A DNA stretch of 45,476 nt, from the NCBI GenBank assembly GCA_016868975.1, contig VGFD01000002.1, forward strand, positions 1 to 45,476, written 5' to 3'. The notes under the pieces are model-generated. The model saw nothing but the letters and a program-made list of their open reading frames with translations, was not told the origin of the DNA and did no database searches. Positions 11,834-26,226 of this stretch are shown in pieces. A program made the translations under genes and the position numbers. Every line of letters starts with the position of its first letter. Position 1 is the stretch's first letter. The DNA is from Armatimonadota bacterium. Lineage in GTDB: Bacteria > Vulcanimicrobiota > Xenobia > RGZZ01.

Positions 11834-14332
11834 GTGGGCATGAGTGAGGCCACGGTATCCCTGGTAGTACACGGCTCGCACGAAACCCGCGAGTACCCTC
11901 TGGAGCCGGGGCGGCGCGTCACCATCGGCGCTGACCCGAGCAACGACGTTGTCATCGGCGAGGACGGCGTGCAGCCTCGCCACGCCGCCATCGAGTGGGA
12001 CGATGAAGGACCGGCCGTCGTCGACGTCGCCGCCCCCACCGACGTCTTTCTGAACGGGCAGCGGGTGGCCCGCGGCCCCCTGGAGAACGGCGACTTCATC
12101 AAGCTGGGCACCGCGCGGCTGGTGTTCCACGAGAGCGCGGCCGTGAGCGGCGCCGCGCTGCGCGGAACGGTGCGCGGGCGCGTCGTCCGCGTCGTCCTGG
12201 AGTCTGACTGCTTGCGCATCGGGCGCGGCGGGGACAACGACGTCGTGCTCGACCATCCCCAGGTGGCGCGCCGTCACGCCCGCGTCGAGAGGACCGCCGG
12301 GGGCTGGACGCTGCTCGACGAAAAGGACATGTACGGCACCTTTCTCAACGGCAAGCGGCTGGACGGCGCCGCGCCGCTCCAGGAAGGGGACCGCTTCACC
12401 ATCAGCGCGTTCCACTTCCGCCTGGTTGGCGACGCGCTGGAGTATTACAGCGAGGCGGGCAATGCGCGGGTGGACGTGCTCAACGTGCAGCGGGTGGCGG
12501 GCGGCAGCCGCATCATTTTGCACGACGTGTCGTTGTCGATTTACCCGCGCGAGTTCGTGGCGCTGGTGGGCGCCTCCGGCGCCGGCAAGAGCACGCTGAT
12601 GAACGCGCTCTCGGGATTTCGACCAGCGGATGCGGGCCGTGTTCTTCTCAATGGCACCGACTACTACGCGCACTTCGACAGTTTCCGCGCGAGCCTGGGA
12701 TTCGTGCCCCAGGACGACATCATCCACCGCGAGCTGACCGTGGAGCGCGCGCTTCATTATGCCGCCTGCCTGCGCCTGCCGGAGGACTCTTCCGAGGAGG
12801 AGCGGGCCCAGCGCATCAACGAGGTGCTCCACGATCTGCACCTGACCGAGCGCCGCGACACGCCCATCGCCAATCTTTCCGGAGGCCAGCGAAAGCGGGT
12901 CAGCATTGGAGTGGAGCTGCTCACCCGGCCGCGGATATTCTACCTGGACGAGCCCACGTCGGGCCTCGACCCCGGCATGGAAACCGAGCTGATGCGGATT
13001 TTCCGCAACCTCGCCGACAAGGGCCACACCCTGGTGATCGTCACCCACGCGACGAAAAACATCACGCTGTGCAACAAGATCGCGTTCATGGCCGAGGGGG
13101 GATATCTGGCGTTCTACGGCTCGCCGCAGGAGGCCCTGGAATTTTTCCGGGCCGACGACTTCAGCGACATCTACTTGAAGATCCAGAATGAGAGGACGCC
13201 GGAGCAGTGGCAGAACGAATATCGCGCGTCCCCCTACTACCAGCGCAACGTAGGGAACCGGCTGGCCGAAGTGGAGACCCTGGCCCGCGAGGCGGCCGCC
13301 GAAGCGCGCGAGGAAGGCGCCGTGGAGCGCGCCGCGCCGCGGGCCTCCGCATTGCGCCAGTACGGTATTCTCACCCGGCGCGCTCTCGAGATTCACCTGC
13401 GCGATCGGGGGAACCTGGGGATCTTGATGGGCTCGGCGCTCTTGATCGCGCTCTTGATCCCGTTTCTGTTTCCGGACCCCAACCTGCTGCAGCCCTTTGT
13501 GTTCGCGGATTTCAATTTTCCGCCGGCCGCCGACGGTCCGCGCGATCCGTCGTCAATTACGGACAACTACGGCAAGGCGCGCCAGATCGTGTTTTTCACG
13601 ATTATCGCCGCCATTTTCTTCGGCGTGAACAACGCCATCCGCGAGATCGCCCGGGAGATTCCAATCTATCGGCGCGAGCGCACGGTCAACTTGCAGATAC
13701 CTCCTTACGTGTTTTCCAAGCTGACCGTGATGGCGGCGCTCTGTCTGACGCAGGTTGCTTTGCTCACGCTGGTCATCGGTTTCCACCTCAAGGTGCCGGA
13801 GGCGAGCCCGCTGTTTTATGCGAAGCTGCTCGCCCTGCTCTGGCTGGGCTCGCTGGCCGCGATGGCCATGGCGCTCGCTTTTTCCGCGTTTGCCAGCAAT
13901 GAGAACAAGGCCGGCTCGGCGCTGCCGGTGCTGATCATACCGCAGATATTCCTGACCGGCATTTTTCCTCGCCTGACCGGGACGGCCGCGCTGGTCACCA
14001 ACTTCGGGCTGACCAAATGGATGTATGAGACTCTCCACCACCACCTGCGGCTCTGGAACATCTTTCCCTCGCCGCAGACTATCACCAATCCGCAGGTTGG
14101 GGCCGGCCTGCAGATGATGGCCAACGACGCCAGCGTCGATTGCGCGGTCATTCCCTGCAAGGCTCAGATGGCGCTGGCCGACCTGCAAGACCTGATCGAC
14201 GCCGGGGCGAAAGCCATGCCGCCGCCGGGCTATTCCTACCTCCACTACATGACCGTGTTGCTGGGCTTCTTCGTGTTTTTCACCGCGCTCACGTGCTGGT
14301 TCCAAAAACGCAAGGACTGGCAGCGGGATTAG
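11834..14332 (+). CDS. Tandem FHA domains fused to an ABC-2 (ABCG-like) transporter
   Basis: Two FHA modules (HAAIEWDDEGPAVVDVAAPTDVFLNGQRV; RRHARVERTAGGWTLLDEKDMYGTFLNGKRL), Walker A GASGAGKST, LSGGQRKR, YLDEPTSGLDP, C-terminal TM segments. Confidence 0.93.
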   Translation: MGMSEATVSLVVHGSHETREYPLEPGRRVTIGADPSNDVVIGEDGVQPRHAAIEWDDEGPAVVDVAAPTDVFLNGQRVARGPLENGDFIKLGTARLVFHESAAVSGAALRGTVRGRVVRVVLESDCLRIGRGGDNDVVLDHPQVARRHARVERTAGGWTLLDEKDMYGTFLNGKRLDGAAPLQEGDRFTISAFHFRLVGDALEYYSEAGNARVDVLNVQRVAGGSRIILHDVSLSIYPREFVALVGASGAGKSTLMNALSGFRPADAGRVLLNGTDYYAHFDSFRASLGFVPQDDIIHRELTVERALHYAACLRLPEDSSEEERAQRINEVLHDLHLTERRDTPIANLSGGQRKRVSIGVELLTRPRIFYLDEPTSGLDPGMETELMRIFRNLADKGHTLVIVTHATKNITLCNKIAFMAEGGYLAFYGSPQEALEFFRADDFSDIYLKIQNERTPEQWQNEYRASPYYQRNVGNRLAEVETLAREAAAEAREEGAVERAAPRASALRQYGILTRRALEIHLRDRGNLGILMGSALLIALLIPFLFPDPNLLQPFVFADFNFPPAADGPRDPSSITDNYGKARQIVFFTIIAAIFFGVNNAIREIAREIPIYRRERTVNLQIPPYVFSKLTVMAALCLTQVALLTLVIGFHLKVPEASPLFYAKLLALLWLGSLAAMAMALAFSAFASNENKAGSALPVLIIPQIFLTGIFPRLTGTAALVTNFGLTKWMYETLHHHLRLWNIFPSPQTITNPQVGAGLQMMANDASVDCAVIPCKAQMALADLQDLIDAGAKAMPPPGYSYLHYMTVLLGFFVFFTALTCWFQKRKDWQRD

Positions 14333-14353: not shown

Positions 14354-16192
14354 GTGCGACTCAAGAAACGGGGAACGGCGCTGGCCACGGTCTTGCTCGC
14401 CTCGGGGGTATTGCTGGTGGTCTGTATGGCGCTGGGCACCATGGCCATTCTCGATCTGGACGTGTCGAGCTCCTACTCGATGCGCTCCCAGAGCTTGCTG
14501 ATGGCCGAGGCGGCCGTCAACCAGCTCATCGCCGAGATGGATCGGGCGCAGGAGCGGGAGATTGAGGAGGGCGGCGGCAGCGGCCTGGAGATGAGCGACC
14601 TGCCCCGTCTTGACCTGCTGGCCCGTTTTCGGGACCCGGTGTTTCCCGCCGGTGCCAACCGTTTTCCGGGAGAGGTCTTCATCACCTTCGACACGCGCCA
14701 CCAAATGGGCCACTATTCGGTGGACAACTCCTACAACGAAGCCCCGGCCGCCGGCTGGCTCGATCGGGGCACCAGCAACCGCTCAGTGCCGCCCTTTTCG
14801 ATTGACCTCCTGATCCAGACGAAGATAGGAAGCCGCGCCACCTGGTACCAGGCCACCCTGCGGCGGCGCTGGCCATACGTGCTGTGCACCCCGGGGCGGG
14901 TCACGCTGATGGGCGCGCCGACCTACGCGAGAGACCGCAAGACCACCACGGTCGTGCCCTCGGAGGTGACCGGCAACATCTTCAACCTCCCGGGGGTATC
15001 GTTCAGCCCGTCGCCGCCGCCGGACGCGTCCCCTCCGCCGCCGCCGGACACGGACCAGAGCATCTTCGTCGACGTGAACCTGATTGACAACCTGCTGGGC
15101 GTGCTGCCGCCCAACACCGCCACGGTGAGCGTGGGGGGAGAGTCGTCGGTGAAGGTGCTGCTGTCCGACGGGAGTTACGGCCCCTCGGTGCGGGTCACCA
15201 GCATCGGCAACATGCTGCTCGGGTCGGTGGACGTGGGCGCCGAGGATCCCAACGCGGGCATCGACGTGTACCCGGGCAACAGGGCGGTGGGCTCCTTCCG
15301 CCAGGACGTGAAGCCGTTCAACCTGGAGAAGAGCTTGCAGCGCGCGTTCCAGCTGCCCAGTTACGGAAATTTCCGGGAAGTCCCGCTGCAGGCGGACCCG
15401 CCCGGCTGGCGGCCCGAGCCGGTGCCGGGGCCGGAGTCGGCCGAGGATCCCAACAGCGAGTCGACGACGCCGTCGCCTTCCCCTTCCCCCAGCGAGGAGC
15501 CGGAGGATCCCGGCCCGCCGCCCTTCTTCGTGCTCTATGAGAATCTCGTTCTCAGCGGGCCGCCTCCGCCGGAGGACGAATCATTCAATTTTGACGAGCG
15601 AGGGTGTTACCGGATCAGCACGCCGGCCGGCAACCGCTACATCGTCAACGGCAACCGGCGCAATATTTATTACACGGGGAAAGGAATCGAGCTGCACGAC
15701 TGCATGCTCTACATCGCCGGAAATCTGGATCTGTCTTCCACGCTCCCGCTGGCGGGCGGCGCGGCGACAGTTCCGCCGCTGCGCGGCAATAACGCGACCC
15801 TCATCGTGGACGGCACGCTCATCGTCAACAACGGCTCGCTGAGCGGCAGCGAGGATGGCATGGTGATTTATTGCCGGCGTCTGGTGACGGCCGCGCAGGG
15901 CACCTATCACGGCTTGATCATGGTGCAAAAGAGCGCCGCCATCTGTCCCGCCTTCCCGGGCGCGAAAATCGAGATTCAAGGCGGCATCGTGTGCGGCGGC
16001 GACCCGGTGCAGCTTTTCGCGCTCAACCCGAATTTCGATCCGGAAGCTCAGGGCGGCGGCCCGGAGGAAGTGGACGTCCGTCTCGACGGGCTCCATCTGT
16101 GGTCCACGCACTTGAAGTACGATGCCCGCTACCTCAAGACCTTGAACCGCCTCGGCCCGCTGACCCTGCTGGCCCTGCGCCAGATCGAGTGA
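14354..16192 (+). CDS. PilX-like prepilin with a large C-terminal beta-rich domain
   Basis: GTG start; KKRGTALATVLLASGVLLVVCMALGTMAI N-terminal TM segment; Pro/Ser-rich linkers; strand-rich C-terminus. Confidence 0.65.
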   Translation: MRLKKRGTALATVLLASGVLLVVCMALGTMAILDLDVSSSYSMRSQSLLMAEAAVNQLIAEMDRAQEREIEEGGGSGLEMSDLPRLDLLARFRDPVFPAGANRFPGEVFITFDTRHQMGHYSVDNSYNEAPAAGWLDRGTSNRSVPPFSIDLLIQTKIGSRATWYQATLRRRWPYVLCTPGRVTLMGAPTYARDRKTTTVVPSEVTGNIFNLPGVSFSPSPPPDASPPPPPDTDQSIFVDVNLIDNLLGVLPPNTATVSVGGESSVKVLLSDGSYGPSVRVTSIGNMLLGSVDVGAEDPNAGIDVYPGNRAVGSFRQDVKPFNLEKSLQRAFQLPSYGNFREVPLQADPPGWRPEPVPGPESAEDPNSESTTPSPSPSPSEEPEDPGPPPFFVLYENLVLSGPPPPEDESFNFDERGCYRISTPAGNRYIVNGNRRNIYYTGKGIELHDCMLYIAGNLDLSSTLPLAGGAATVPPLRGNNATLIVDGTLIVNNGSLSGSEDGMVIYCRRLVTAAQGTYHGLIMVQKSAAICPAFPGAKIEIQGGIVCGGDPVQLFALNPNFDPEAQGGGPEEVDVRLDGLHLWSTHLKYDARYLKTLNRLGPLTLLALRQIE

Positions 16193-16554
16193 GGCGCGGG
16201 CTCTCCATTCTCGAAGTGATTTTCGCCATGGCGATTTTATCTTTGTTGTTTCTTTTCGTGCTGGGCATCCTGCCGACCGGGGTGAGATCAATTAAAAAAT
16301 CCGAGGATATGGCGGCGGCCGCCGCCTACAGCGTGGAATTGATCGAGGACGCCCGCCGCAACATGCCGCAGGCCGGCGCGCAGACTTTCAGGCTGACGCT
16401 GAACAATACCGAATTTGTGATGGTGCGGGAAATCTACCGGGTGGACGCGGCGCTCACCGACATCGCCGTTACCGCGTCCTGGCAGCCCAACACGCCGCCG
16501 CTGCGCTACGTCACGCGCCTGCGCGGCCAGCTGCCGTCCCCGTCGCCGCGATGA
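16189..16554 (+). CDS. Type IV pilus/T2SS prepilin (minor pseudopilin)
   Basis: GTG start overlapping upstream TGA; RRGLSILEVIFAMAILSLLFLFVLGILPTGV prepilin N-terminus. Confidence 0.8.
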   Translation: MRRGLSILEVIFAMAILSLLFLFVLGILPTGVRSIKKSEDMAAAAAYSVELIEDARRNMPQAGAQTFRLTLNNTEFVMVREIYRVDAALTDIAVTASWQPNTPPLRYVTRLRGQLPSPSPR

Positions 16555-17186
16555 GGCGCCGCGGCTTCACCCTGGTGGAGATCCTGGTGGCGGGCGGCCT
16601 GCTGCTGCTGCTGCTGGGCGTCGTCTGGTACCTTCTGGTGCCGGCCTGGCGCGCGTACATGAAAGGAGATCGCAAGTCGGACGTGCAGCGCAACAGCATG
16701 GTGGTGGGCGCCCGCATCGCGCAGGAATTCCGCAATGCCTACGGCTCGTCGGTGGCGGTGAAGAAGATCCCGGTCACGACGCCGGACGGAGAAGTCCGCC
16801 AGGACGCGGTGATTTTTCTCTCGGATCTCGATCTGCGCGGCGACCTGCAATTGACGCCGGACGGGGATCCGATCTGGCAGAAAAGGGTGGTTTTCTACCA
16901 CGACGGGGAAACCAACCAGATCCGCTCCAAGGAGATCCCGCTCGATCCCCCGTCGGTGGATCCAGATCCGCTGATTGTGGAGACCTTCGATCGCAGCCCG
17001 AAGGACCGCATCATCGCGCGTCACGTGAAGGAGCTGAAATTCAGCTGGGATCTGGCGCCGAGCCTGCAGATCATCGTGCAGGCCGAGCGCGAGGGCTATA
17101 CCTCCCGCTTCGAAACCAGCGTCACCCCGCTGCTCGACGCCTTCGTCCCGCCGCCCCCGCCGCCGAGCTCGAGCCCGTCGCCGTAG
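16551..17186 (+). CDS. PulJ/PilW-like prepilin
   Basis: MRRRGFTLVEILVAGGLLLLLLGVVWYLL; overlaps upstream stop (ATGA). Confidence 0.85.
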   Translation: MRRRGFTLVEILVAGGLLLLLLGVVWYLLVPAWRAYMKGDRKSDVQRNSMVVGARIAQEFRNAYGSSVAVKKIPVTTPDGEVRQDAVIFLSDLDLRGDLQLTPDGDPIWQKRVVFYHDGETNQIRSKEIPLDPPSVDPDPLIVETFDRSPKDRIIARHVKELKFSWDLAPSLQIIVQAEREGYTSRFETSVTPLLDAFVPPPPPPSSSPSP

Positions 17187-17270: not shown

Positions 17271-18713
17271 TCAAACGCGCCAGGCGTCGTAGGTGTGGCC
17301 CAGCTTCAGCATGGTGTCGACCCGCTCGAACAATGCGTTTATGGCCTTCGGGTGGAGCAGGTCCTCTAATTCCGCGGTAATTTCCTTGCGGTGTTTTTTC
17401 AGGCTTTTCAGCGCCGCGGTGGCCTCGTCGTCGAGCTTGACCTGCTTGTCGAAATCGTAGTTGATGCCGCCCTGCTCCTTGTTTTGCAGCGGGAAGCAGA
17501 GGCCGTGATCGATGGGAATCGCTTCGACGTCCTGTTTGCCCGCCACCATCCAGTTGCCGTTGTGGCGGTCGGTGTTGCCCAGCACGTTGTCGAGCACCGC
17601 CATGCGCCGATAAGAGGAGTTGCGCGCGCTGGAGGAAATCTGGGAAGCGCGCTTGGAATCCTCGGCCTGCTCGACGCCGTTGAGCCACCACATCATCGCG
17701 CCGTTCTGGCGTCCCATCTTGCGGTAGACGGTGGGCTGGACCTTGCCGTAGTGGCCCATCCAGCGATCCACGACGTAGGCGGCCGCCTCCCGCTTGCCCT
17801 GATTTCCGGCTTCGATCTGATCGCGCAGAACGCTCTTGTCCTCACCCGCCGAAGGCTTCCACATGGCCTGCGCGCGGTTGCTCAGACCCACGTGGGTGCT
17901 GGCGTTGATGCCGGTGCCAATGCTCTGGGTTTGGGCGATGCGCGCGTCGGTGTCACGCAGGTACGCTTCCGCCACCGCGTATTCGGCCGGCGTGCTGGGG
18001 ATTTTCATCATCGGCAGCGCGGCGAAATGCGCGGCGGCGCCGCCGATGGGGCCGGCCACCGGGCCGGCCACCCGCAAGCCCAGGAAACGCATGGTTTTCG
18101 CGAGCCATCCCGTCGACCGCTCGGGGATGGTGACGGTCACCGTCGGCTCATTCGCGGGCATGCGCAGCATCGCTTCGGCTTCGTGCGGGTGGAGCAGCGT
18201 TTCCTCGCGGTTGCTTGCGCGAACCACGCCATCAGGCAGGCTCTCCATGAGGTGCGGGGCATTGGCCACGCGCAGCGACGGGGGCAGCGTGCTGGCGCGC
18301 TTGTGCTCGTGCGAGATGGCGCGCTTTTCGGTCTGCAGCGCGCGCTGCACGGCGGAGACGTCCCCACCCTGCTCGCGCATCCGGCGCACAATCGCGGCGG
18401 CAACCTGGTTGGGCGCCCCAAATCCCACGCTGCCCGCGGCGAACAGCGCGAGGCCCTCCTGGAGCGCGGCCAGCCGATCGGTGGACCTGTCTTCGGTGGC
18501 GCGCACGGCGGCGTGGACGATGCGCAGCGCTTCCTGCTCGTCCTTCGAGCCGGCCTGGCGCACCACGCTGTCGACGTCGGCAAGGGCGTCCTCGGCGTCC
18601 AGCACCTGGCGCGTGGTCGCGCGAAACCAGTGGGGCTGCTGCGCGCGCTGCAGCCCCTGGCGCGCGATGGTGTCGAGGCGTGGCTCCACGTGGGAAAGGT
18701 TCAGCAGCCGCAA
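17271..18713 (-). CDS. PI3/PI4-kinase-like (type II PI4K-like) kinase-fold protein
   Basis: AMWKPSAGEDK (candidate ATP-binding Lys), REAAAYVVD, VLGNTDRHNGNWMV catalytic loop, AIPIDHGLCFPLQNK (compare PI4KII IDNGLAFP). Confidence 0.75.
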   Translation of the reverse strand: MRLLNLSHVEPRLDTIARQGLQRAQQPHWFRATTRQVLDAEDALADVDSVVRQAGSKDEQEALRIVHAAVRATEDRSTDRLAALQEGLALFAAGSVGFGAPNQVAAAIVRRMREQGGDVSAVQRALQTEKRAISHEHKRASTLPPSLRVANAPHLMESLPDGVVRASNREETLLHPHEAEAMLRMPANEPTVTVTIPERSTGWLAKTMRFLGLRVAGPVAGPIGGAAAHFAALPMMKIPSTPAEYAVAEAYLRDTDARIAQTQSIGTGINASTHVGLSNRAQAMWKPSAGEDKSVLRDQIEAGNQGKREAAAYVVDRWMGHYGKVQPTVYRKMGRQNGAMMWWLNGVEQAEDSKRASQISSSARNSSYRRMAVLDNVLGNTDRHNGNWMVAGKQDVEAIPIDHGLCFPLQNKEQGGINYDFDKQVKLDDEATAALKSLKKHRKEITAELEDLLHPKAINALFERVDTMLKLGHTYDAWRV

Positions 18714-20141: not shown

Positions 20142-20630
20142 CTAAAGACTGGAGTCGTCCCGCCAGTTGAGCAGCTTGAAATAGTTGGGGTTGGGGCCGC
20201 CGCCGACCCGCAGGGTCGGGGCCACGTCCAACTCGGCGTGGAGCCTGCGGCGGGCCTGAGGGGCGCTCTCGCTGCCCAGCGTGCCCTGGCTGGTGAGCAG
20301 CACGACGCGCCAGGGCGCCCGGGATTTCGACATGTCAATGGTGACCGTGTAGCGGCCGAGGAATGCGCCGTCGACGTCGGTGAAGTCCTCGGCGTACGAG
20401 TAGGTGAGCGTATCGTCAGTCAGCCGGGGAGGAAACGACGGGTCTTTCTCGAGTTTCGCGCGCGCGTCTTCCAGGCCGGCTTCGGCGATGGCGGCCGCCT
20501 GCGCGGACTGGGAGGCCTGCATCGCGCCGCGATATTGCGCCATCTTGATGCCCAGCAGCGCAAGCCCCATCACCAGCAAGATTGCGGTGACGCACATGCC
20601 GACCACCAGCGTGAAGCCGCGCCGCCTCAC
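20142..20630 (-). CDS. PilX-like minor pilin
   Basis: GTG start; RRRGFTLVVGMCVTAILLVMGLALLGIKMAQYRGAMQASQSAQAAAIAEAGLEDAR. Confidence 0.75.
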   Translation of the reverse strand: MRRRGFTLVVGMCVTAILLVMGLALLGIKMAQYRGAMQASQSAQAAAIAEAGLEDARAKLEKDPSFPPRLTDDTLTYSYAEDFTDVDGAFLGRYTVTIDMSKSRAPWRVVLLTSQGTLGSESAPQARRRLHAELDVAPTLRVGGGPNPNYFKLLNWRDDSSL

Positions 20631-21171
20631 TGCCCGATCCTCAGGCGCAGCCGGGTGGAGAGCGTTTTTACGATTTTTCCGTCCTGAAATGAAGCGTCGA
20701 TCTGGTAGAGGCCTTTTCCCTGCGCGGCGCACGAGAATCCGGCCACGCCTTCGGCCACCGCGTCGCTCCGCGCGGTTCCCTGCGCTGTGGTGACCGCGCG
20801 CAGCAGGACGCCGTTTTCCACGTGGTAGGAAATCGTGAGCATGGCCGCCGCGGGGTAAGCATCCCACGCCGCCGGAGTGGGGGATGGAGAGGCCGGAAGA
20901 GGGTTTCGTCGTCCGGATCAATTCGGGTGAAAGTCAGCGTGGATGACGTCTGCCCGGCCGACGGCGCGCTGACCACGACCGCTTCGGCAAGCTCGTCGCG
21001 CACCCGCTGCACCGCGGTCTGCCCGGCCCGCAGCGCGGTGTCCTTCTGGGACGTTTAGCGCAGCGCGCTGCCGTACTCGGCGCACAGCCCGGCCACCACG
21101 CCGAGCACGAGCGACACGAGAAACAGCGTGGCCAGCACTTCCACCAGGGTGAGGCCGCGGGCGCGTCACAT
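20627..21171 (-). pseudogene. PulJ-like pseudopilin, disrupted by two in-frame stops and one frameshift
   Basis: ATG(21171)-TGA-RARGLTLVEVLATLFLVSLVLGVVAGLCAEYGSALR-TAA(21057-21055)-TSQKDTALRAGQTAVQRVRDELAEAVVV…DDETLF, then -1 frameshift to PASPSPTPAAWDAYPAAAMLTISYHVENGVLL…LRIGQ*. Confidence 0.75.
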
Positions 21172-21245
21172 CAGGGATCCGCAGCCCGTTGTCTGAGCGC
21201 CATGCAGGGATCTTTCGCCGCCCTTGAGGGCGCGCCTGCAAGCGC
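21172..21245 (-). pseudogene. Putative C-terminal remnant of the interrupted prepilin (…QGALAGAPSRAAKDPCMALRQRAADP*)
   Basis: Frame ends in TGA that overlaps the ATG of the next gene (TGATG), as expected for an operon; boundary is approximate. Confidence 0.4.
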
Positions 21246-21297
21246 GCCTTGCCGTTGAAATGAAATTAGCGTGCGCGTCGAGAAAACAAAGGACACC

Positions 21298-22359
21298 ATG
21301 GCAGGCCAATTTGAATTGCGCATCCGCGCCGGGCGCGACTGGGCCGCGCCGCTTGAGGGCACTCGTATCGTGATCGGCTGCGATCCCTCGTGCGACGTCG
21401 TATTGCCGGACGACGGCCGCACCGCGCGTCGCCACGCCATCCTGCACCTTGCGCCCGAGGGCCCCTCGCTGGTGGATCTGCAAACCACCAGCGGCACGCT
21501 GCTCAACGACGTGCCAATTTCCAACGCGGGACTGGTACACCTTGACCGCATCGGCATCGGCGGGGCCATCCTGGTATTTCGCGACGCCGGGCGGGAAATC
21601 GATCCCGACGAGATGGCCGATCTGCTGCGTCACGAGGGCATCGTCGCGGCCGGCTCATTTGCGTGGCCGGGCATTTCGCTGGTGCCCGTCGAGCCGGTGG
21701 CTGACGACGCGGCGATCATCCGGCGCCTGGCGGATATTGCCCGCGAAAATGACGAAATGCGGGCCCGCGCCGAACGCGAGGCCGAAGCCGGCGGGCGCTT
21801 CGTGGGCGCCGTCGGCCGTCGCGTGGTCGACGCCGTCCGCAATGGCGCGCTGCACTTTACGCCGCAAGGCCGCGCCGACGATCTCACCATCTTGTTCGCC
21901 CGCTTGCACGCCTTTGAGGAAAATCCGCTCGACACTTTGCCCGCGCGCCTTAACGCGATTTTCGAGGATCTCGCGGATCGCATTTTCGAGCACGACGGCG
22001 TGGTCTGCCAGTTTTTGAAACACCGCCTGCTGGCACTTTTCGGAGGCCCCTGGACCACGTACGCCGCCGACGAAGCCGCGCGCCAGGCGGTTCGCGCCGC
22101 CGCCGCCATCGCGCCGCTTGGAGCGTGCGTCGGCATGGCTTGCGGCCCGGTCCGCCTGGGACGGGTCGGCGCGCGACGGCGCAGCACCGTGTCCGCGCAG
22201 GGAGACGCGGTCAACGTGGGCGCGCGCCTGTGCGGGCTGGCCGCGCCCGGGGAAATCCTCGTCTCGGCGCCGCTGGCCGATCGCCTCGGCACGACGCTCA
22301 CGCCGCGCCACGGCCTGACCCACAAGTCCGGTGAGCCGCTCCCGGCGTTCGTCCCGTGA
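21298..22359 (+). CDS. FHA domain fused to a degenerate class III nucleotidyl cyclase domain
   Basis: FHA: RIVIGCDPSCDVVLPDDGRTARRHAIL…SGTLLNDVPI; cyclase fold: DLTILFARLHAF, FLKHRLLALFGGP, AQGDAVNVGARLCGLAAPGEILVS. Confidence 0.8.
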   Translation: MAGQFELRIRAGRDWAAPLEGTRIVIGCDPSCDVVLPDDGRTARRHAILHLAPEGPSLVDLQTTSGTLLNDVPISNAGLVHLDRIGIGGAILVFRDAGREIDPDEMADLLRHEGIVAAGSFAWPGISLVPVEPVADDAAIIRRLADIARENDEMRARAEREAEAGGRFVGAVGRRVVDAVRNGALHFTPQGRADDLTILFARLHAFEENPLDTLPARLNAIFEDLADRIFEHDGVVCQFLKHRLLALFGGPWTTYAADEAARQAVRAAAAIAPLGACVGMACGPVRLGRVGARRRSTVSAQGDAVNVGARLCGLAAPGEILVSAPLADRLGTTLTPRHGLTHKSGEPLPAFVP

Positions 22360-22690
22360 GCGGGCCGTGGACGCTGCTCTACGTGCGCTCTTCACGCGGC
22401 ATCCGCATGCGCCGGGTAGCCATCCCCGCCCAGGGAGTTGCCGTCGGCTCGAATCCCAAAGGAGGCCTTGCGCTTGACGCGGACGGCGCGGTGGACGATC
22501 GACATTTCGAAATCACGCTGGACGCGGGCGGCCCGCTCTTGCGCGCCCACGGTCCGGTGCGGGTTAATGGCAATCTCGTGGAAGGAGCCCGCCTGCGCCA
22601 CCTCGATCGCATCGAAGCCGGCACCTCGCGCCTCGTCCTCTACGACGACGCGGCCGCGCCCGCGCCGCGCCGGGCCGCACGGGCGCTGGA
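22356..22690 (+). CDS. FHA-domain protein, native 3' end uncertain
   Basis: GTG start overlapping upstream TGA; DDRHFEITLDAGGPLLRAHGPVRVNGNLVEGARLRHLDRIEAGTSRLVLYDD; downstream of about 22691 the frame is antisense to other genes. Confidence 0.55.
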
Positions 22691-22745
22691 CACCGGCCGC
22701 GATGAGCAGCTCGAGCATGGAGAAGCCGCGGCGGCGAGTTCTCAC
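22691..22745 (-). pseudogene. Truncated prepilin N-terminus (VRTRRRGFSMLELLIAAG…)
   Basis: GTG start at 22745 overlaps upstream TGA (GTGA); consensus prepilin peptide, then similarity stops abruptly. Confidence 0.65.
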
Positions 22746-23092
22746 AAGTCGCCCCCGATCCGGGCCGTCCCGCTCAGAGGCTCGCCGCTGAGCGGGACGC
22801 GCTGCTCCTGGTGGCCGGCTCGCACCGAACAATACGTCGGCCTTCTCGAGCAGACCACCGAGAGGCGCAGCTCAAACGCGCCGTCGGCGGAGATCGGCTT
22901 GCGGACGTCGAGGGGGATTTCCGGAAAGTGGAAGTCGACCACCGTCTCGCCCACGTCAGCCACGTCCCGCACCACGATCTCGAGGGGACGCGAGGAACGC
23001 TGCTCGGGTCGGCCGCCCGCGAACGCAAAGAGCGCGGCGATCACGAAGCCGAGCAGCAGGACGGCGGCCAGGATTCGGCTTTTCCGCTTCAC
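22742..23092 (-). CDS. Small membrane-anchored hypothetical protein
   Basis: GTG start with GAGGAG upstream; VKRKSRILAAVLLLGFVIAALFAF TM segment; C-terminal domain ending GTARIGGDL*. Confidence 0.6.
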   Translation of the reverse strand: MKRKSRILAAVLLLGFVIAALFAFAGGRPEQRSSRPLEIVVRDVADVGETVVDFHFPEIPLDVRKPISADGAFELRLSVVCSRRPTYCSVRAGHQEQRVPLSGEPLSGTARIGGDL

Positions 23093-23220
23093 GGCGGCTC
23101 CTCGCGCTGGGATTTTTCCCATCGTAACAGGGGCCGCCGGGGCACGAAGTGATCGGAGACACTTTCACCACGCGTGTCATCAGGTGGAATATAGCAATCG
23201 TCGTGTCGAATTTCTTTCCG

Positions 23221-24302
23221 ATGCAGGAAACCCGCCCGTCATGGCTGCAGCGCAGGCGCATTCCTGCGTCGCTGCTCATCCCGTACACCCGGCAGTTGGC
23301 CACCATGCTGGCGGCCGGGGTGCCCACCCCCGCGCCCTCGACGGCATGGCGCGCACCGGGGACAACCTCGTGCTGAGCGCGGTGACGCTGGAGCTGAGCG
23401 CGGCGGTGGCGCGCGGCTTGAGCCTGTCGCAGGCGCTCGCCATGTACGGGCGGGTGTTCCCGCCCATTTTCGTGGCCATGGTGCGGGCCGGGGAGGAGGG
23501 CGGATCGCTGCGCCGCACCCTCACCCAGCTCGCGGACTGGATGGAGCGGGACGACCGCGCGGCGCGCCGTCTCAAGGCCACGATGGTTTATCCCGGATTC
23601 GTGGTGGCGCTCACCGCGGCGCTCACGCTGGCGTTGTTCTACTGCGTGCTTCCCCGGTTCGTGGACATCTTCAACGACATGGGCGTGACCCTCCCGGTAA
23701 TCACCCGCGGGCTCATGGAGATCACCCGGGCGGTCCGCAATCCGTGGGCGTGGCTGGCGGTGGCCTGCCTGGCCGGCGCGGGTGCGGCCGGGCTGCGTGC
23801 CATGCGCGCGGATCCTGGCGGGCGCCTCCGTATGCAGGCGCTGTCGTTTCGGATTCCGCTGGTGGGACCGCTGCTGGAGCGCAGCACGCTGGCCCGCTGG
23901 TGCGCGATGGTGAAGCTCATGCTGGGCTGCGGCGTGGGCCTCGTCCCCACCCTGCAGATCGCCGCGCTGGCCAGCGGGAGCGCGGTGCTGCAGGCGGACG
24001 CCCGCTCGCTGGTGGACGCGGTGACCAGGGGCCTCACGCTCAGCCAGGCGATGCAACGCCGCCCGCGGATTTATCCCGCGCTGCTGGTCTACATGGCGCG
24101 GGCCGGCGAGGAAACCGGCGACCTCGGGGAAATGTTCGGACACGCGGCGGTATTTTATGACCTCGACGTGGCGACGCGGCTGGAGATTTTGACGGCGTCG
24201 CTGGAGCCGCTGCTGCTCAGCGCGATCACCATCGGCGTGGGCGCGCTGGTGATCGCGATTTTCGTGCCGATATACGGGATGGTCCGCACGGTGGGGCCGT
24301 GA
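23221..24302 (+). pseudogene. GspF/PilC-like inner membrane protein, frameshifted near base 23330
   Basis: Frame 1 RRRIPASLLIPYTRQLATMLAAGVPTP; frame 2 RALDGMARTGDN…MVRAGEEGGSLRRTLTQLADWMER…YMARAGEETGDLGEMF…VIAIFVPIYGMV. Confidence 0.75.
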
Positions 24303-24308
24303 CGGGTA

Positions 24309-24602
24309 TCAAACGCGAGCCTTCCAGTCGCGGGGATTTCGCCGCCCGTGCATGACTGCGATGACCGCAATGCGTTCGCGCTCTTCCACGAAGAACACGG
24401 CGTACGGGAAACGGTGCATCAGCGCGCGCCGTACATCGGGATGCACTCTCGGATAACGGGCCGGATTCATCTCAATGGCATCGAGTGTAGTAAGAAGCTC
24501 GTCGAGGAATTGCTGTCCGAGAAGTTGCGCTTGCCGCTCATACCAGACCGAGGCCTCCTCCACGTCCCATTCGGCTTCAGGGAGGAGATAGGATGGCCTC
24601 AC
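24309..24602 (-). CDS. ParE/RelE-family toxin
   Basis: AEWDVEEASVWYERQAQLLGQQFLDEL…YPRVHPDVRRALMHRFPYAVFFVEERERIAVIAVMHGRRNPRDWKAR. Confidence 0.9.
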   Translation of the reverse strand: MRPSYLLPEAEWDVEEASVWYERQAQLLGQQFLDELLTTLDAIEMNPARYPRVHPDVRRALMHRFPYAVFFVEERERIAVIAVMHGRRNPRDWKARV

Positions 24603-24808
24603 AGACGCTTTCGAATCTGCTCAATTGCCTCTCGGGCCGGTCTGCCTGGGGAACCGCTTGAACGGTAGGTTTCGAGGCGTCGGTCAAGCTCGCGTTTTTG
24701 CTCCTCGGTCAGAGGCAAGGCATTCTGGTCCACGGCAATGCTGTCCCAGATATCTTCCACGAGCTGGATTCGTTCGGATACCGGCAGGTCGCGAATGCTC
24801 TGATCCAT
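24599..24808 (-). CDS. Addiction-module antitoxin (TIGR02574-like)
   Basis: LPVSERIQLVEDIWDSIAVDQNALPLTEEQKRELDRRLETYRSSGSPGRPAREAIEQIRKRL; 4-nt overlap with toxin. Confidence 0.88.
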   Translation of the reverse strand: MDQSIRDLPVSERIQLVEDIWDSIAVDQNALPLTEEQKRELDRRLETYRSSGSPGRPAREAIEQIRKRL

Positions 24809-26226
24809 CAAACTGAGGTTCGCTCTGGCGGGTCGGTTTCCTTTGGCAGCCAGAACACGAACGTGGCGCCGCCGCCCGCGGTGGGCTCGACGCGGATCTC
24901 GCCGCGGTGGGCTTCCACCAGGCCGCGCGTGATCCACAGACCCAGGCCGCTCCCCTCGCGGGCCGTGGTATCGCCGATGCGCTGGAACGGATCGAAAATC
25001 CGCTCGCGCTCTTCCGCGGGAATTCCGGCCCCGTGATCCACCACCCGGAACACCACCGCGCGATCGGTTTCCTCCGACTCGACGATTACCTCACGGCCGA
25101 TCGGCGCATATTTTATTGAGTTGGACAAAAGATTGGTGAAAATCTGCCGCAGCTTGGCCGGGTCCGCCGCCAGCGCCTCGCAGCGCACCTTGTTGGCGAT
25201 GACCGGACGGTTTGTTGCTTCGGTGGCTTCTCCGATGAAAGCAATTTCCTCGTCCACAATCATTCGGGGGTTCACCTGGCTGCGATGCGTCTTGAAGCTC
25301 GGTGACGGCGTGGCTTCGGCGGAGGTCTGGCGGGCGGCCTCGAGATAAGTGTCCACCAGCGACCGCGCGCGCCGAGCCGCGTCGGAGATCTGCTCGATGA
25401 GCCGCGAGCGCTCGGCCGGTTCCTCGCTGTGGTCCGCGGCGTAGGCGGCCATCATGATCACGCTCAGGGGATTTTTTAGATCGTGCGCGGCCACTTGCAG
25501 GCTGTCCGACATGGCGGCGCGCTGCGCCGTGACCTCGCGCGCCTCCAACTGTCTGCGGCGGGTTTCCTCGCGCAATTGATCGGCGTGCAGGGCGGCGGCG
25601 AGCAAGGCGCCGATGGCTCGAATGAAGGGGAAATCATCCCTGGTGAGCGGCATCTCGGGCGCCGGCGTGTCCACGCAGAGCACGCCGAGAATTTCCTCGC
25701 GCGCGATGAGCGGCACGTAGATGGCTGTCTGGATGCGGTTGAGCACCACGCTGGGCGCGTCGCTCACCGCGGCGTGCTGGCTCGATCCCTGGAAAAAGAA
25801 CACCGCGTTGCCCGACTCCACCGCGTAGCGCGCCATGGAGGCGCTCACCGGGCTCCTGGGCAGTCCCTCGCGGCGCAAGACCGCCTCCGGGAGGAGCGAG
25901 CGCAGCCCGAGCACCGGGTCGGGCGGCCATTTCGCCACCGTCACCCGCTGGGCCGAGGGCACCACGTCAAAAATGCGGCGCAGCGCCGTGGCCATCAAGT
26001 CGAGGCCCTCGCAGCGCAGCATCTGCTGCGCGATGTCGGAAAGCGCCTCGACGGCGGTCTGGGCCAACGCGCCCTCGCGGACGATGGCGCCGACTTCCGC
26101 GGACGTGGCGTCGGCCTGCGCGCTCACCATGACGTCGGGATTCATGCGCCAACTGGGTTCAACGGCCAGGGCGGGCTTGCCTGTCGGTCGGGCAGTGACG
26201 CCCCACGGGGAGGATGTCGAGGCCAC
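24808..26226 (-). CDS. GAF-domain sensor histidine kinase (start may be internal at 26145)
   Basis: GAF-like region, H-box VAAHDLKNPLSVI, N-box NLLSNSIKYAP, VVDHGAGIPAEERERIFDPFQR, GSGLGLWITRGLVEAHRG. Confidence 0.92.
   Translation of the reverse strand: MASTSSPWGVTARPTGKPALAVEPSWRMNPDVMVSAQADATSAEVGAIVREGALAQTAVEALSDIAQQMLRCEGLDLMATALRRIFDVVPSAQRVTVAKWPPDPVLGLRSLLPEAVLRREGLPRSPVSASMARYAVESGNAVFFFQGSSQHAAVSDAPSVVLNRIQTAIYVPLIAREEILGVLCVDTPAPEMPLTRDDFPFIRAIGALLAAALHADQLREETRRRQLEAREVTAQRAAMSDSLQVAAHDLKNPLSVIMMAAYAADHSEEPAERSRLIEQISDAARRARSLVDTYLEAARQTSAEATPSPSFKTHRSQVNPRMIVDEEIAFIGEATEATNRPVIANKVRCEALAADPAKLRQIFTNLLSNSIKYAPIGREVIVESEETDRAVVFRVVDHGAGIPAEERERIFDPFQRIGDTTAREGSGLGLWITRGLVEAHRGEIRVEPTAGGGATFVFWLPKETDPPERTSV

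What the first reader, a model, noticed from the sequence alone, without database searches (positions are those of the whole stretch)
21172..22745. Two-gene FHA cassette apparently inserted inside a prepilin gene on the opposite strand
Seen: on the minus strand a prepilin gene starts at GTG 22745 (VRTRRRGFSMLELLIAAG), overlapping the upstream stop, then loses any pilin character at about 22691. Between there and about 21245 the plus strand encodes two overlapping FHA genes. At 21172-21245 a minus frame (QGALAGAPSRAAKDPCMALRQRAADP*) ends with TGA overlapping the next pseudopilin ATG (TGATG), just where the end of the missing prepilin would be in a GspH/I-J-K style operon. Inference: about 1.45 kb carrying FHA-cyclase plus FHA moved into the prepilin gene. 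No target-site duplication or terminal inverted repeat was visible by eye.
Basis: partly seen in the sequence, partly recalled or inferred. Interest (0 to 1): 0.62.

Follow-up and report, generated by a model that had tools for sequence, protein, structure and literature searches.

The report
Decayed pilin operon with FHA replacement
A set of genes for a pilus-like fibre has fallen apart in this uncultured bacterium, and two opposite-strand signalling-type genes (FHA domains plus a dead cyclase) now sit where a pilin gene belongs; this looks like ordinary gene decay and rearrangement, not a mobile cassette.

Summary
A prepilin gene starts at GTG 22745 on the minus strand, overlaps the upstream stop, and loses all pilin character after 18 codons (22692). 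An FHA–pseudocyclase gene and an FHA gene then lie on the plus strand. The lower "remnant" (21172-21245) is not supported: no frame resembles the C-termini of 37 relatives. Class relatives show what is missing. In 51 loci a PilV-like gene (V, about 250-310 aa) abuts PilW-like (W) and PilX-like (X) genes, with no FHA-cyclase gene inside. The window's T2SSF gene best matches the T2SSF genes of those operons, so this is one degraded system. V is gone, W carries TGA at codon 2, TAA and a frameshift, and T2SSF has an N-terminal frameshift; only X and an orphan membrane protein are intact. The FHA pair is single-copy, has no terminal repeats or target duplication, and its second gene has lost its own stop codon. 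A replacement during pseudogenisation (the missing V, perhaps with an H-type pilin gene) fits best. Separate deletions beside a native FHA pair, or a MAG assembly join, remain possible. Novelty is low: rearrangement within a high-turnover pilin family.

The parts
23221..24302 (+). T2SSF/GspF-like gene with a frameshift at about 23327-23331 (C5 run); pseudogene or sequence error
   Evidence: Pfam T2SSF E 2.5e-42; third-position GC switches frame between 23200-23349 and 23290 onward; closest to GspF genes of relatives' V-W-X operons, L053 40.7% identity
22742..23122 (-). orphan gene for a small protein with one N-terminal membrane segment, coding frame intact, first gene of the minus-strand operon
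   Evidence: no Pfam match, no relative in 18 class genomes, strong third-position GC in this frame
22692..22745 (-). 5' fragment (18 codons) of a prepilin gene, VRTRRRGFSMLELLIAAG
   Evidence: N_methyl E 2.3e-4, profile positions 1-16 of 27; prepilin motif absent from shuffles; position-specific score H-type 23.4, V-type 17.8
21298..22359 (+). FHA1: FHA domain plus class III cyclase homology domain that has lost both metal-binding aspartates
   Evidence: Yop-YscD_cpl 1.1e-12, FHA 4.5e-10; PDB match to adenylate cyclase 1wc0 2.2e-8; alignment with six relatives
22356..22691 (+). FHA2: FHA-like domain complete (about 22422-22646) but its own stop codon is lost; frame runs on open to 24302 through the antisense of two genes
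   Evidence: Yop-YscD_cpl 1.4e-5; ORF 22356-24302; frame composition
20627..21171 (-). PilW/GspJ-like prepilin pseudogene: TGA at codon 2 (21168-21166), TAA at 21057-21055, frameshift at about 20880-20907
   Evidence: translations, homology pieces with stops, third-position GC frame switch
20142..20630 (-). PilX-like prepilin gene, intact
   Evidence: PilX_N 4.3e-4; up to 47% identity to the X genes of relatives' operons
21172..21297 (.). 126-bp stretch between the divergent starts of PilW-like and FHA1; no detectable PilV remnant
   Evidence: comparison with 37 PilV-like C-termini; no promoter consensus found

Best explanation
This is a pseudogenised type IV pilus / type II secretion-like minor pilin locus. 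The ancestral layout was X <- W <- V, probably with an H-type pilin gene too, next to a divergent GspF-like gene. The sequence between the prepilin start (22692-22745) and the W start was lost and replaced by an opposite-strand DNA fragment carrying an FHA-pseudocyclase gene and the front part of a second FHA gene. The exchange was probably illegitimate (end-joining) recombination: no repeats flank the fragment, and both the pilin gene and FHA2 end abruptly at the same point (about 22691). Shown: the missing V, the broken W and GspF, the cut pilin, FHA2 without a stop. Inferred: that one replacement event caused the V loss, and that the other mutations followed because the system no longer worked. 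The FHA proteins probably have no role in pilus assembly.
For: In 51 distinct class loci V sits directly upstream of W (gap 2-27 nt) with no FHA-cyclase gene in the same stretch. The window's GspF is closest to the GspFs of those operons, and a divergent GspF is a known layout (L081, L082, L085, L093, L095, L100, L110, L112). W has two nonsense codons and a frameshift, GspF a frameshift, and third-position GC switches frame at both places. Other genes checked in the same contig are intact. The own genome holds no other full-length V or H of this type. Relative L055 shows an independent decay of the same kind: V reduced to its C-terminal third beside a glycolate-oxidase-like gene, W without its N-terminus.
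Against: No same-genus relative is held, so neither the intact predecessor nor an empty site was seen. No V remnant is found at the lower boundary, so the FHA pair is not proved to lie inside one gene. The 18-codon fragment scores more like H (23.4) than V (17.8). The GspF frameshift falls in a C5 run and could be a sequence error. The genome is a MAG with 8.4% contamination, so an assembly join is not excluded.
Confidence: 0.52

Rival explanations
1. The FHA pair was a long-standing neighbour of the pilin genes, and two separate deletions removed V on one side and the ends of FHA2 and the pilin gene on the other. No insertion took place.
For: Junction 22691 joins two convergent genes that are both truncated, which one deletion explains. 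FHA1 and W start divergently 126 bp apart like normal neighbours. In relatives L056/L070 a gene with an FHA-like N-terminus and a GGDEF domain (named by eye from its sequence) lies divergent from V right next to a V-W-X operon.
Against: Needs at least two deletions instead of one replacement. The L056 gene is a different, GGDEF-type protein. No relative has this FHA-cyclase pair beside pilins.
Confidence: 0.25
2. The arrangement is an assembly artefact: the MAG assembler joined pilin and FHA contigs, and some of the stops are errors.
For: MAG of 956 contigs with 8.4% estimated contamination. The GspF frameshift is in a homopolymer. Prepilin starts are conserved and numerous in this genome.
Against: W carries two substitution-type nonsense codons besides a frameshift. 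Other genes checked on the contig are intact. The missing V or H is not found elsewhere in the bin. GC is similar on both sides.
Confidence: 0.18
3. A mobile two-gene FHA cassette inserted cleanly into one prepilin gene.
For: The FHA pair lies between a pilin start and the next pilin gene in the expected order.
Against: No terminal repeats or target duplication, no second copy, no transposase or integrase among the flanking genes examined, FHA2 lacks a stop, and no pilin C-terminus on the far side.
Confidence: 0.05

Closest known systems
PilV-PilW-PilX type minor pilin operons with GspF/PilC-like platform genes, as found in 51 loci of the same class
   Same: order of W and X, overlapping starts and stops, prepilin leader, GspF-like gene of the same subfamily, divergent GspF in some loci
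   Different: V absent, W and GspF broken, an orphan membrane-protein gene and an FHA pair present
FHA-class III adenylate cyclase proteins (class relatives L008, L009, L016-L018, also L012; PDB 1wc0 for the cyclase domain)
   Same: N-terminal FHA-like domain, C-terminal cyclase homology domain, N and R of the late catalytic motif kept (VNVGARL)
   Different: about 130-200 residues shorter overall, mostly between the domains; both metal-binding Asp replaced (FCDIR to FARLH, IGDA to LKHR); FHA G-R and N-G positions degraded
Pseudogenised pilin operon in relative G008 contig 669 (L055)
   Same: same operon type, V truncated next to an unrelated gene, W damaged, X intact
   Different: the invading neighbour is a glycolate oxidase-like gene on the same strand

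Membership tests
V-W-X minor pilin operon | W-like and X-like prepilins in order, with overlapping start/stop | tested here: met
   W stop and X start overlap at 20627-20630
V-W-X minor pilin operon | PilV-like gene directly upstream of W | tested here: not met
   only 18 codons of a prepilin 1.5 kb away; no C-terminal remnant
V-W-X minor pilin operon | open, translatable W and GspF | tested here: not met
   TGA, TAA and frameshift in W; frameshift in GspF
Mobile gene cassette / insertion element | terminal repeats or target-site duplication | tested here: not met
   no repeat pair brackets the FHA genes except D1, which is the two homologous prepilin leaders
Mobile gene cassette / insertion element | recombinase gene or multiple copies | tested here: not met
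   single copy in own genome; no recombinase in the genes examined
Class III nucleotidyl cyclase (active) | two metal-binding aspartates | tested here: not met
   alignment A3
FHA domain protein | FHA/YscD-cpl fold by profile | tested here: met
   phosphothreonine-site residues degraded, binding not testable here
Type II secretion / type IV pilus system (functional) | assembled fibre or secretion activity | not testable with these tools
   needs experiment; genome is an uncultured MAG

The most novel reading that the evidence does not exclude
The FHA-pseudocyclase pair is a functional replacement rather than debris: it took over the V position, and FHA2 is now read through in frame into the GspF-like platform protein (ORF 22356-24302), placing an FHA signalling domain on a secretion platform.
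Probability: 0.04. Interest if true: 0.45.

Novelty: new member of a known kind. Interest (0 to 1): 0.2.

Why it matters
It is one clear example of how fast minor pilin operons turn over in a lineage whose relatives carry dozens of them per genome, with truncation, replacement and nonsense decay in progress at one locus. It does not reveal a new element or mechanism. If the FHA2-GspF read-through were real it would be a new domain fusion, but frame composition argues against it.

Tried and rejected
Lower pilin remnant: tested in three frames against 37 PilV-like C-termini with shuffles and a positive control; rejected. I first read one frame (...IPAWRSDNGLRIP) as a V C-terminus with one lost C; p = 0.12, not accepted. 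Target-site duplication and terminal inverted repeats: none. A second FHA-pair copy or donor in the genome or in named genomes: none; the only hit is a 29% cyclase match in a Sneathiellales MAG. FHA-cyclase loci in relatives beside pilins: none. Missing V or H elsewhere in the own genome: none full-length of this type. FHA2-GspF fusion as a real gene: long antisense frames are common here (17% of six-frame codon positions are followed by 226 or more stop-free codons), and third-position GC supports the minus-strand gene in between. A hairpin near 22766-22799 as a regulatory or mobile element: not more stable than shuffles (z -1.3). One literature search for FHA and pseudopilin clusters listed two papers whose titles and abstracts do not bear on this arrangement; they were not read.

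Full report
What was checked. The window is contig C2 (1-45476) of a MAG with 956 contigs, 93% completeness and 8.4% contamination. On the minus strand, GTG 22745 overlaps the TGA of the upstream gene (GTGA) and encodes VRTRRRGFSMLELLIAAG. This is a true prepilin leader: it is one of four such motifs in six frames of the window, against none in 40 shuffles, and Pfam N_methyl matches, but only profile positions 1-16 of 27. Pilin character stops after codon 18 (22692).

The plus-strand genes. FHA1 (ATG 21298, preceded by AAAGGA) has an FHA/YscD-cpl domain and a cyclase homology domain. Aligned with FHA-cyclases of relatives, it lacks both metal-binding aspartates (FCDIR to FARLH, IGDA to LKHR) and much of the FHA phosphopeptide site, but keeps VNVGARL. 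It is probably a pseudoenzyme. FHA2 (22356) has a complete FHA-like domain ending near 22646. It has no stop before 24302: the frame runs through the antisense of the pilin start and of the membrane-protein gene into the GspF frame. Third-position GC supports the minus-strand gene in that stretch, not the plus frame, and long antisense frames are common in this GC-rich contig.

The lower boundary. That frame is the tail of a 132-codon frame antisense to FHA1. Compared with the C-termini of 37 PilV-like proteins, it scores no better than shuffles (p = 0.79); the other two frames give 0.12 and 0.93, while 35 of 37 real C-termini give p = 0. So no remnant is shown there.

What the locus was. Searching the class with the minus-strand proteins gave many loci with the same W and X genes. 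In the fetched regions there are 51 distinct loci in which a PilV-like gene (V) lies directly upstream of W, with 2-27 nt between them, and none of those stretches holds an FHA-cyclase gene by profile. A 640-740-residue prepilin (H) often lies upstream of V or downstream of X, and a GspF-like gene is nearby, sometimes divergent. The window's GspF has its best matches among the GspFs of these operons (L053, 40.7%). The one family member with this operon, G002 contig 322, has V-W-X-H. The 18-codon fragment scores higher as H (23.4) than as V (17.8), but the family's own V (RRRGFSVLETIVALF) is also close, so its assignment stays open. If it is H, the replaced stretch covered about 2.8 kb; if V, about 0.7 kb.

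Decay. W has TGA at codon 2 (21168-21166), TAA at 21057-21055 and a frameshift near 20890; third-position GC moves from one frame to the other at that point. GspF has a frameshift near 23327-23331, again visible as a switch. X is intact. The other genes checked on the contig, including a second pilin cluster at 14.3-17.2 kb, are intact, so damage is concentrated at this locus. L055 in a relative shows a similar state reached independently.

How it probably happened. The pilin gene and FHA2 both end abruptly at about 22691, with no repeats, and the FHA pair has no other copy. That suggests illegitimate recombination that replaced pilin sequence with a broken FHA fragment, during or before the general decay. 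A native FHA neighbour plus two deletions, or an assembly join, cannot be excluded, because no same-genus genome is held and reads are not available.

Verdict. It is an ordinary decayed and rearranged pilin locus.

Noticed in passing
window 24309-24937 (-): ParE-like toxin and Unstab_antitox-like antitoxin gene pair directly beside the decayed GspF gene.
   Followed up: no
window 11834-14332 (+): ABC transporter with two N-terminal FHA-like domains, an architecture like that of mycobacterial Rv1747 (comparison from general knowledge).
   Followed up: no
window 17271-18713 (-): Protein with PI3/PI4-kinase and Fam20C-like profile matches, between pilin genes and an ankyrin-repeat gene.
   Followed up: no
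window 14354-17186 (+): Second, intact pilin cluster (large first gene, then X-like and W-like prepilins) on the same contig.
   Followed up: partly
window 22766-22799: Near-perfect 16-nt inverted repeat in the end of the membrane-protein gene, about 20 nt before the pilin start; not exceptional against shuffles.
   Followed up: yes
L055 (G008:C669) 1577-2370: Independent decayed V-W-X operon in a relative: V reduced to its C-terminal third, W lacking its N-terminus, beside a glycolate oxidase-like gene.
   Followed up: partly
G003, G008, G010, G013, G016, G017 genomes: Class relatives carry about 17-38 matches each to the V-W-X pilin query, an unusually large repertoire of minor pilin genes.
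   Followed up: partly
L056 3357-5066 (G003:C23): Gene with an FHA-like start and a GGDEF domain, divergent from the V gene of a V-W-X operon and followed by a protein kinase-like gene (named by eye).
   Followed up: partly
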